This document shows, piece after piece, positions 49,213 to 52,656 of a DNA stretch of 64,000 nt. Source of the DNA: an uncultured Desulfosarcina sp. (GTDB lineage Bacteria > Desulfobacterota > Desulfobacteria > Desulfobacterales > Desulfosarcinaceae); the NCBI RefSeq assembly GCF_963668215.1, contig NZ_OY764190.1, forward strand, positions 4,836,001-4,900,000, given 5' to 3'. The notes below the pieces were generated by a model. It was not told the DNA's origin, did not search any database, and saw only the letters and a list, made by a program, of their open reading frames with translations. Every line of letters starts with the position of its first letter. Position 1 is the stretch's first letter. The translations under genes were made by a program, and so were the position numbers.

Positions 49213-50946
49213 ATGAATGAAGCTCCACTAATCGACGTGTTCTGGATCGTTTTTTCCGCGAGTCTTGTTTTCCTCATGCAGCCCGGTTTCATGTGCCTTG
49301 AATCGGGGCTCACGCGTTCCAAGAATTCCATCAATGTGGCGGTAAAAAACCTGGCCGATTTCGCCTTTTCGGTGATCGGTTTTTGGGCTGTGGGCTATGC
49401 CATCATGTTCGGTTTTACGCAATCAGGGCTGTTCGGCGGCACGGGGTTTTTCTTTTCTTTCGACCAGGGGGCCTTTCCAACGGCCTTTTTCTTTTTTCAG
49501 GTCATGTTCTGCGGTACCGCAACCACCATTTTCTCGGGCGCCGTGGCCGAACGGATGAAGTTCTCTTCCTACCTGGTGATTGCCGGGTTGTTGGCCGTCT
49601 GCGTATACCCGGTATTCGGACATTGGGCCTGGAACGGTCTGGAAACCGGCGAAATGACCGGCTGGCTGGGCAGCCGCGGGTTCGTGGACTTTGCCGGTTC
49701 GACAGTGGTGCACAGTGTGGGCGACTGGCTGGCCCTGGCCGCACTCCTAGTGATCGGCCCCAGGGATGGCCGTTTTCCCGAAAACGGTCCACCGAGGGAA
49801 ATGACGGCCTTCAACCTGCCCATGTCCATCCTCGGTGTCATGCTGCTGTGGTTCGGCTGGTTCGGGTTCAACGGTGGATCGACCCTGGCCCTGAACGGAT
49901 TGGTGCCCGGCATCATTGCCAAAACAACGCTGGCGGCCAGTACCGGTGCGGCCGCCTGTGTCCTTTTCGCCTGGTACACCACCGGCCTTCCCAAGGTGAC
50001 GGCACTGATCAACGGATCTTTGGGCGGGTTGGTGGCTATCACCGCTTGCTGCCATTGCGTCGGTTCCGTCGCTGCCGCCGTTATCGGCGTCGTGGCCGGC
50101 CTGGTGTGCCTGCTTGTCGAACACCTGCTGGTACGGTTCAAGGTGGACGATGCTGTGGGCGCCGTGCCCGTGCATCTGGGCTGCGGCATCTGGGGCACCC
50201 TGGCGGTGGCCCTGTTCGGTGATGCCGAGCGGTTGGGCACCGGGCTCAACGGCTGGGGGCAGTTCGTGATACAGGCGGAAGGCATTGTCGCTGCGTTTGT
50301 GGTCGCCTTTGTCATTCCCTATTTTGTGATCCGAAGAATCGATCGTATCTGGCCCATGCGCGTTTCCATAGAAGATGAGAAAAAAGGCCTCAATGTCTCC
50401 GAGCATGGGGCGACAACCGAACTTCACGATCTTTTCGAAGCCATGGATTACCAGACAAAAAGCGGAGACCTGTCTGTTCGGGTCCCGGTGGAGCCGTTTA
50501 CCGAGGTTGGGCAGATTGCCGAGAAATACAATCATGTCATGTCCGCGCTGGAGCGGGCTTCATCAACCATCGAAACGGTTTTTCGTTCGGCCAGCGATGC
50601 TATCGTGACGTTTGCCGCCGGTACGCACCAAATCCTGCACGTCAATCCCAGCGCGTGGCGCATGTTCGGTTTTCCGGGGCCGGCGGAGATGGTGGGCTGT
50701 CCGGTCACCGACCTGTTCGTGATCCCGGAAGAGGGGGGGCGCCAATCCGTTGCCGCCAGGCTTTTTTCATACAACCATGTGGAACTGAGAGGGATTCGGC
50801 TGGAAGGCCCGAGTTTTCCGGTGGAAGGCATCGTTACGGCTCCCGGGGAATCGGATGAAGGCTTTTTTGTCGGAACGTTTCGGGATATTTCCAAACGGAA
50901 AGACGACCAAGCCAAAATTGAGCGGCAACAGGCATTTTTCCGGTAA
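49213..50946 (+). CDS. Ammonium channel (Amt) with C-terminal PAS, ended by an in-frame TAA
   Basis: Residues 1 to about 380 are an Amt/Mep/Rh channel with eleven membrane helices. They contain QPGFMCLESGLTRSKN, FWAVGYAIMFG, the pore-lining GHWAWN and VHSVGDWLALAA, and HLGCGIWGTLAVALFGD. A HAMP-like linker and one PAS domain (about 455-565) follow. The frame stops at TAA (50944-50946) right after QQAFFR, yet the same frame continues with LFDSSPLGIMM, the start of another PAS domain. CAA (Gln) would restore a single protein of about 1147 residues. Amt fused to signalling domains is known in other phyla. Confidence 0.88.
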   Translation: MNEAPLIDVFWIVFSASLVFLMQPGFMCLESGLTRSKNSINVAVKNLADFAFSVIGFWAVGYAIMFGFTQSGLFGGTGFFFSFDQGAFPTAFFFFQVMFCGTATTIFSGAVAERMKFSSYLVIAGLLAVCVYPVFGHWAWNGLETGEMTGWLGSRGFVDFAGSTVVHSVGDWLALAALLVIGPRDGRFPENGPPREMTAFNLPMSILGVMLLWFGWFGFNGGSTLALNGLVPGIIAKTTLAASTGAAACVLFAWYTTGLPKVTALINGSLGGLVAITACCHCVGSVAAAVIGVVAGLVCLLVEHLLVRFKVDDAVGAVPVHLGCGIWGTLAVALFGDAERLGTGLNGWGQFVIQAEGIVAAFVVAFVIPYFVIRRIDRIWPMRVSIEDEKKGLNVSEHGATTELHDLFEAMDYQTKSGDLSVRVPVEPFTEVGQIAEKYNHVMSALERASSTIETVFRSASDAIVTFAAGTHQILHVNPSAWRMFGFPGPAEMVGCPVTDLFVIPEEGGRQSVAARLFSYNHVELRGIRLEGPSFPVEGIVTAPGESDEGFFVGTFRDISKRKDDQAKIERQQAFFR

Positions 50947-50973
50947 CTGTTCGATTCTTCCCCCCTGGGAATC

Positions 50974-52656
50974 ATGATGGTGGATACCCAAAGGCGCATC
51001 GTGGAAACCAACGAGGGGTTTACGGCCCTGTTCGGCTACACACCGGAGGATCTGCACAACCGGCGGGACATGGCCATGTTCGTTCCGGACCATTTGATCG
51101 GAGAGGCCGAAACCTATTTGTCTGCCGTGTTGAAGGGCAAGACCATCTCACGGGAAACCGTTCGCAGGGACAAAACCGGCCGGTTGATCGATGTCTCCCT
51201 GTTCCTTTATCCCATTCGGGTCAATGATGAGATCCAGGGGGCTTATTATATTTACAACGATATCACCCAGCGGAAGGAATATGAAACCCAGTTGTCCCAC
51301 CAGGCATTTCACGATGCCTTGACCGGATTGCCCAACCGCGTGCTTTTTTTCGAGCGGCTCGCTTCGGCCGTGCGGCGAAAAAAAAGGAAGAAGGATTTCG
51401 CCTATACGGCCATGATGCTGGATATGGACCGCTTCAAGTCCATCAACGATACGTTGGGACACCAGGTCGGCGATGCCTTTCTGGTTCAGGTTGCCGAACG
51501 CCTGAAGGGTTGTGTGCGCAGTACCGATACGGTGGCAAGGCTGGGAGGGGACGAGTTCGGCATTATCCTGGAAGAGTTTCGCCATCTGCGCGAAGTTGTG
51601 GCCGTGGCCAAGCGGATCGTGAAAGATCTGGAAAAACCGGTGGCCATTGAAGCCAACGAGATCCGTTCCTCGGCGAGTGTGGGCATCGTGCTCAAGACCC
51701 TTTATTATGACGATGCGGAATCCGTCATGCGGGATGCCGATATCGCCATGTACCGGGCCAAGGAGATCGGCAAGGCCTGTTTTCGGGTGTTCAACAACAA
51801 AATGCATACCAAGATCGTCCGGCAGACCGAGCTGGAACGCGAGCTTCGCAGCGCGATCAGCAACAGAGAATTGGCTGTCTATTATCAGCCCATCGTCACG
51901 GTTCAGGAAACCCGTCTGGCGGGTTTCGAAGCCCTGGTGCGCTGGAACCATCCAACTAAAGGGCTTGTGTCGCCGGCCGAGTTCATCCCGGTTGCCGAGG
52001 AAACGGGCCTGATTATCGAAATCGGAGAATTTGTTTTAAGAGAATCCTGCCGGCAGATGGCGCAATGGCAGACGCTGTCACCGGCCAATAAACAGTTGAC
52101 AGTCTCCGTGAACGTATCGGCAAAGCAGTTTCAGAGTTCCAAACTGACGCGATTGGTGGAATCCGTCCTGGAAGAGACAAGATTGGCGCCAGAAAGCCTG
52201 AAACTTGAACTCACGGAATCCACGTTGATGAAAGACGCCCGGTCCGCCATCAGAACCATGGAGGAGCTGAAAACCATGGGGATTCGCATCGTCGTGGACG
52301 ATTTTGGAACCGGCTACTCCTCCTTGTCCTATATCCAGCGCTTTCCCATCGACGGGTTGAAGATCGATCGTTCCTTTATTTCCGGGGGCGACGAGACCGA
52401 GAACATCAAAATCGTGCGCACGGTTATCGCGCTGGCCAAAAGCATCGGCGTGGACGTGGTTGCCGAAGGCGTGGAAGAGCAGAAACAGCTGGAAATGCTC
52501 AGGGATGTGGAATGCGAACTGGCCCAGGGCTATATTTTCTCTAAACCGATCGATGGGCAGGCGGCTACCCGGCGGTTCATCCGGCAGCCGGATGCAGACG
52601 GCACTGCTGCCAGTCCGCTTGAAAAGCAAGCGATATCAATCCGGCACCGCCCCTGA
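50974..52656 (+). CDS. PAS-GGDEF-EAL c-di-GMP protein (likely second half of the Amt sensor)
   Basis: This frame is in phase with the Amt gene across the TAA. It has a PAS domain whose first 9 residues fall before the ATG, then a GGDEF domain with the exact motif (residues 191-195) and an allosteric I-site RSTD nine residues before it. An EAL domain with EAL at 319-321, VNVSAKQF and DDFGTGYSS follows. All catalytic motifs look intact, so both synthesis and hydrolysis of cyclic di-GMP are possible. No good ribosome site precedes 50974, so separate translation is doubtful. Confidence 0.85.
   Translation: MMVDTQRRIVETNEGFTALFGYTPEDLHNRRDMAMFVPDHLIGEAETYLSAVLKGKTISRETVRRDKTGRLIDVSLFLYPIRVNDEIQGAYYIYNDITQRKEYETQLSHQAFHDALTGLPNRVLFFERLASAVRRKKRKKDFAYTAMMLDMDRFKSINDTLGHQVGDAFLVQVAERLKGCVRSTDTVARLGGDEFGIILEEFRHLREVVAVAKRIVKDLEKPVAIEANEIRSSASVGIVLKTLYYDDAESVMRDADIAMYRAKEIGKACFRVFNNKMHTKIVRQTELERELRSAISNRELAVYYQPIVTVQETRLAGFEALVRWNHPTKGLVSPAEFIPVAEETGLIIEIGEFVLRESCRQMAQWQTLSPANKQLTVSVNVSAKQFQSSKLTRLVESVLEETRLAPESLKLELTESTLMKDARSAIRTMEELKTMGIRIVVDDFGTGYSSLSYIQRFPIDGLKIDRSFISGGDETENIKIVRTVIALAKSIGVDVVAEGVEEQKQLEMLRDVECELAQGYIFSKPIDGQAATRRFIRQPDADGTAASPLEKQAISIRHRP

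What the first reader, a model, noticed from the sequence alone, without database searches (positions are those of the whole stretch)
49213..52656. Ammonium channel-PAS-PAS-GGDEF-EAL protein split by a single in-frame TAA
The Amt-PAS frame ends at TAA (50944-50946), but the same frame continues for 569 codons through a PAS start, GGDEF with I-site, and EAL. The residues around the stop (FFR-stop-LFDSSPLGI) match the usual PAS lead-in where Gln is common, so CAA to TAA is the simplest change. All catalytic motifs on both sides look intact, so the break is either recent, a sequencing error, or suppressed. An Amt channel driving both synthesis and hydrolysis of c-di-GMP would be a notable ammonium sensor.
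Basis: partly seen in the sequence, partly recalled or inferred. Interest (0 to 1): 0.7.

Follow-up and report, generated by a model that had tools for sequence, protein, structure and literature searches.

The report
Recently broken ammonium-to-c-di-GMP sensor gene
A gene that joins an ammonium channel to enzymes making and destroying the bacterial signal c-di-GMP is cut in two by one stop codon in this bacterium while its nearest relatives keep it whole, which most likely means the gene was lost recently rather than that it works in a new way.

Summary
Window 49213-50946 encodes Amt plus a PAS domain and ends at TAA 50944-50946; the same frame stays open for 569 more codons (PAS-GGDEF-EAL, ending 52656). 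The architecture is a conserved family: 13 of 388 other genomes sampled from the order carry Amt-PAS(1 or 2)-GGDEF-EAL, none broken at this position; the two nearest, in the same genus, are whole. The downstream half shows no decay: dN/dS about 0.13 against the closest relative, 30 versus 27 lineage-specific amino-acid changes, no further stop. So the stop is very young, an error, or the two halves still work apart. No UAA-reading tRNA was found (list incomplete), and the internal ATGs have only a weak ribosome site. A second, internally deleted relic copy of the locus lies at 54033-54373, and the Amt half carries Asp at a column that is Gly in all 13 relatives. I read this as a recent nonsense pseudogene of a known kind of ammonium sensor (a solved Amt-GGDEF chain and a published Amt-kinase exist). 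It is a broken member of a known kind; the modest interest lies in the intact relatives. Raw reads, not available here, would settle error versus mutation.

The parts
49213..50946 (+). ORF 1: Amt channel + PAS1, 577 aa, ends at the in-frame TAA
49243..50415 (+). Amt (PF00909) domain, residues 11-401
49723..49725 (+). Codon 171, Asp at a column that is Gly in the 13 relatives; four residues after pore His167
50596..50892 (+). PAS1 (PF13426); matches PAS1 of G064, G095, G285 in register; absent from G014 and G013
50944..50946 (+). In-frame TAA, just before the PAS2 profile start
50950..51279 (+). PAS2 (PF08448)
50974..50979 (+). Two adjacent ATGs, nearest ATG/GTG/TTG internal starts; weak ribosome site
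51304..51774 (+). GGDEF domain; I-site RSTD at 51517-51528
51838..52548 (+). EAL domain
54033..54111 (+). Relic copy of the 3' end of mqnC (source 48799-48877), 78% identical, E 4.8e-11
54144..54373 (+). Relic copy of the 3' end of the EAL part (source 52372-52601), 88% identical, E 1.9e-79; about 3.46 kb missing between the two relic pieces

Best explanation
This is the only copy found in the genome of a conserved putative ammonium-sensing c-di-GMP enzyme (Amt-PAS-PAS-GGDEF-EAL), very recently interrupted by a nonsense change just before the second PAS. Shown: the stop, the intact frame behind it, whole relatives, and no excess change in the downstream half. Inferred: in the intact form ammonium in the Amt pore moves the cytoplasmic C-terminal helix, and the PAS linkers pass this on to set the balance of GGDEF synthesis and EAL hydrolysis. 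Inferred: the sequenced strain makes a 577-residue Amt-PAS stub without output and little or no GGDEF-EAL enzyme, so coupling is lost. A second copy of the locus had already collapsed to a relic downstream.
For: Stop and open frame. 13 relatives with Amt, PAS, GGDEF and EAL by Pfam, 0 of 13 broken at that position. G000 is sister to G014 with equal end branches of 0.13. dN/dS against G014 0.089 before and 0.127 after the stop; G000-only versus G014-only changes 19:15 before and 30:27 after. In simulation, neutral decay over 10% of the branch would add about 38 changes and 2.8 stops; over 3%, about 11.5 and 1.1. Relic copy. Asp171 where the 13 relatives have Gly. No TTA-anticodon tRNA found. 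Internal ATG site -4.2 kcal/mol, matched or bettered by 32% of the window's 1142 ATGs. Three Amt genes in the genome, one of this type.
Against: The absence of decay fits a sequencing error or two working halves equally well. The stop lies neatly at a domain border. No reads, transcripts or second isolate were available. One changed invariant glycine is weak: at otherwise invariant columns G000 has 2 private changes, G014 2 and G013 9.
Confidence: 0.62

Rival explanations
1. Sequencing or assembly error: the genome has the whole gene and the TAA is a false base call.
For: Everything else in the frame is intact and constrained. Two of the 13 relatives have frameshifts that may be assembly errors (G047, G349).
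Against: A lone substitution in a 2-contig assembly is a less usual error than an indel (general knowledge). Reads could not be seen.
Confidence: 0.15
2. Working split: the cell makes Amt-PAS1 and, from an internal start near 50974, a separate PAS2-GGDEF-EAL enzyme that may still associate with it.
For: Both halves show purifying selection. ATG-ATG begins 27 bases behind the stop, with GGGA before it. The same measure also scores the Amt start poorly (-1.3), so a weak site does not rule out initiation here.
Against: The ribosome site is weak (-4.2, matched or bettered by about a third of ATGs) and lies in the conserved Leu-Gly-Ile codons; the first ATG is absent from G014 and both from G013. 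An internal start would drop the first nine or ten residues of PAS2. The region scan shows no promoter-like site before it (2 found in 3.9 kb, 1.9 expected). None of 13 relatives is split here.
Confidence: 0.14
3. The TAA is read through at a useful level.
For: The frame continues intact.
Against: No UAA-reading tRNA among those found; only tRNA-SeC (TCA) reads a stop. The list is incomplete: no Ile (GAT) or Ala (TGC) tRNA was seen, and 150 of 252 first-look candidates were scored. All 13 relatives have a sense codon there.
Confidence: 0.05

Closest known systems
Amt-GGDEF chain in PDB 8qj3/8qj4/8qpf (named 'Ammonium transporter'; 644-661 residues)
   Same: Amt plus linker matches at E 1.6e-115, and the chain carries a GGDEF at 461-628 (E 2.9e-13).
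   Different: With Amt and linker to 448 and GGDEF at 461-628 there is no room for PAS or EAL. One uninterrupted chain. No paper naming these entries is in the held library. I recall an origin in Shewanella, from no call.
Ks-Amt5 ammonium sensor histidine kinase (PDB 6eu6; PMC5764959)
   Same: Amt domain (E 3.3e-87). Of the seven ammonium-site residues named in the passages, five align with the same residue here (Q23, E30, N46, D49, T105).
   Different: Output is a histidine kinase and it lacks PAS (passage). T51 is Phe and T112 is Ser here.
Amt-PAS-GGDEF-EAL relatives in the order (G014, G013, G064, G095, G285, G282, G087, G134, G229, G050, G124, G047, G349)
   Same: Same domain order by Pfam; four two-PAS forms counting this one.
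   Different: None of 13 has a stop at this position; G047 and G349 have frameshifts elsewhere.

Membership tests
Amt/Mep/Rh ammonium channel | PF00909 over the cut-off and the pore His pair | tested here: met
   372.8 bits, cut-off 23.2; His167 and His321 present
Amt/Mep/Rh ammonium channel | ammonium transport or binding | not testable with these tools
   needs an assay
Amt sensor-transducer fusion | Amt and output domain in one translated chain | tested here: not met
   TAA at 50944-50946 separates them; met in the relatives (G047 and G349 carry frameshifts)
Amt sensor-transducer fusion (Ks-Amt5 type) | the extra ammonium site (seven residues named) | tested here: inconclusive
   5 of 7 identical incl. 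the acidic pair, Phe for T51 and Ser for T112; the acidic pair is also in the stand-alone Amt L002 of the same genome, so not diagnostic
GGDEF diguanylate cyclase | PF00990, GGDEF motif, RxxD I-site | tested here: met
   motifs at residues 778 and 769
EAL c-di-GMP phosphodiesterase | PF00563 and catalytic motifs (recalled) | tested here: met
   motifs; near solved GGDEF-EAL chain 4rnh, E 9.4e-115
GGDEF/EAL enzyme | synthesis and hydrolysis of c-di-GMP | not testable with these tools
   needs an assay
Pseudogene | disabling change absent from relatives | tested here: met
Pseudogene | relaxed selection in the disabled part | tested here: not met
   no excess change; compatible only with a very young break
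Stop-codon readthrough gene | stop conserved in relatives, or a tRNA that reads it | tested here: not met
   0 of 13 relatives have it; no such tRNA in an incomplete list

The most novel reading that the evidence does not exclude
A naturally split ammonium receptor: Amt-PAS1 and a separately started PAS2-GGDEF-EAL enzyme work as two partners, so an ammonium channel controls c-di-GMP turnover in trans.
Probability: 0.1. Interest if true: 0.5.

Novelty: new member of a known kind. Interest (0 to 1): 0.27.

Why it matters
It documents a conserved family in one bacterial order in which an ammonium channel is fused to a paired c-di-GMP cyclase and phosphodiesterase, and catches one member just after a break. 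The intact relatives are the better material for asking how a channel that is normally a trimer drives enzymes that normally work as dimers (general knowledge). The stop itself is probably ordinary gene loss.

Tried and rejected
Gene encoded as two in relatives: rejected, 0 of 13. Suppressor tRNA: none with anticodon TTA in ARAGORN runs over 48 loci that cover the 50 tRNA matches; four of those loci gave no tRNA. Intact second copy in the genome: none found; three Amt genes, one of this type. Extra PAS as a private insert: rejected, it matches PAS1 of G064, G095 and G285 in register (E 4e-17 to 2e-21), so loss in G014 and G013 is as likely. Internal promoter: nothing above chance.

Wider sampling: the order sample held 389 genomes, as did the class sample, and both give the same 14 at E 1e-140 or better; of 395 genomes of the phylum sample only the window's own passed E 1e-140.

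Papers: searches whose listings (titles and starts of abstracts) showed no Amt-PAS-GGDEF-EAL protein are 20 of 38 listed; 15 of 22 listed. Two papers were opened, by passages only: PMC5764959 and PMC10433425 (no occurrence of GGDEF, diguanylate or c-di-GMP). The review of Tremblay and Hallenbeck 2009 was seen only as a reference title there. A search for a guessed organism, from memory, gave nothing usable.

Rows dropped: four of nine reference loci (L007, L134, L010, L023) were read on the wrong strand, leaving 19 valid rows of 23. In some searches the fusions of G012, G362 and G302 (other outputs, found) were left out before the counts. No structure prediction was run; it would not tell error from mutation.

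Full report
Observation. The frame at 49213-52656 gives 577 residues, TAA at 50944-50946, then 569 residues to a TGA. Pfam places Amt at residues 11-401 and a PAS at 462-560 before the stop; after it come PAS, GGDEF and EAL. The stop sits directly before the PAS2 profile start. The GGDEF and EAL motifs and the RxxD I-site are present (motif meanings recalled).

Relatives. The window lies in a 6.68 Mb genome of two contigs with three Amt genes, one of this type. In the same genus, G014 (81% over residues 1-499) and G013 (69% over 5-506) carry the fusion as one frame; that family search examined 30 genomes. In 389 genomes of the order sample, 14 including the window's own match the Amt part at E 1e-140 or better. 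Each of the 13 others has Amt, PAS, GGDEF and EAL by Pfam in one frame (the EAL match of G349 is partial) and none is broken at this position. Two have frameshifts elsewhere: G047 near the start and G349 near the end. Residues at the stop column, of 13: Gln 9, Glu 2 (the two nearest), Lys 1, His 1.

Architecture. G014 and G013 have one PAS, the window two. PAS1 matches the first PAS of G064, G095 and G285 in register (E 4e-17 to 2e-21), so it is not a private insertion. On the tree G000 is sister to G014 (97/99), and the one-PAS/two-PAS label needs two changes.

Age of the break. Against G014, dN/dS (NG86) is 0.089 before and 0.127 after the stop; within the second half PAS2 is 0.204, GGDEF 0.090, EAL 0.125. 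Changes unique to G000 versus unique to G014, with G013 as reference, are 19:15 before and 30:27 after the stop; the ratios do not differ (Fisher p 0.83). In a simple simulation, neutral decay of the second half over 3% of the branch would add about 11.5 changes and 1.1 stops, over 10% about 38 and 2.8. No such excess is seen, so loss of the second half, if real, is very young. This cannot separate a young loss from an error or from two working halves.

Ways round the stop. ARAGORN found no tRNA with anticodon TTA in 48 loci covering 50 tRNA matches; one tRNA-SeC (TCA) was found. Ile (GAT) and Ala (TGC) were not seen, so the list is incomplete. The nearest internal ATGs, 50974 and 50977, have a duplex energy of -4.2 kcal/mol with the anti-SD; 32% of the window's 1142 ATGs do as well or better. 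The GGGA is part of the conserved Leu-Gly-Ile codons; G014 keeps only the second ATG and G013 neither. The Amt start itself scores worse (-1.3), so this measure is a weak guide in this genome.

Signs of a locus in decline. At 54033-54373 lie, in order and orientation, a copy of the mqnC end (78% over 79 bases, E 4.8e-11) and of the EAL end (88% over 230 bases, E 1.9e-79), with about 3.46 kb missing between them. This is best read as a second copy of mqnC-Amt-EAL that lost its middle. Residue 171, four after pore His167, is Asp here, Gly in the 13 relatives, and Gly or Ala in the five other valid rows. It is one of two private changes of G000 at otherwise invariant columns; G014 has two and G013 nine, so this alone is weak.

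How it would work. In the intact family the likely course is ammonium binding in the Amt pore, movement of the C-terminal helix, and relay through one or two PAS domains to GGDEF and EAL. This is inferred from Ks-Amt5, where ammonium modulates a fused histidine kinase (passages of PMC5764959, part of the abstract among them), and from the Amt-GGDEF chains 8qj3, 8qj4 and 8qpf. Of seven residues named for the Ks-Amt5 site, five are the same here, T51 is Phe and T112 is Ser. The acidic pair is also in a stand-alone Amt of this genome, L002, so the match does not prove sensing.

Verdict. Most likely a recently broken copy of a known kind of ammonium sensor (0.62), next an error (0.15) or a working split (0.14), least readthrough (0.05). 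The stop is probably ordinary; the conserved intact family is the part worth following.

Noticed in passing
54033-54373: Relic of a second copy of the mqnC end and EAL end, with about 3.46 kb lost between them.
   Followed up: yes
54960-57390: A DDE transposase (PF01609) appears split, its parts at 54960-55856 and 56947-57390, with an rve-type integrase gene (55901-56932, minus strand) between: one insertion element inside another.
   Followed up: partly
52667-53926: AAA_14/DUF4143 ATPase on the minus strand lies between the broken gene and the relic.
   Followed up: partly
43861-48899: UbiD-family, MqnE-like, menaquinone-biosynthesis (PF02621) and MqnC genes in a row just upstream, which looks like the futalosine menaquinone pathway.
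   Followed up: partly
31687-32540: Imperfect direct repeats of about 330 bases (67% identical) in the window.
   Followed up: no
L116:8194-10476 (minus strand): G012 has an Amt followed by a coiled region that looks like a methyl-accepting chemotaxis signalling part (read by eye, no domain search).
   Followed up: no
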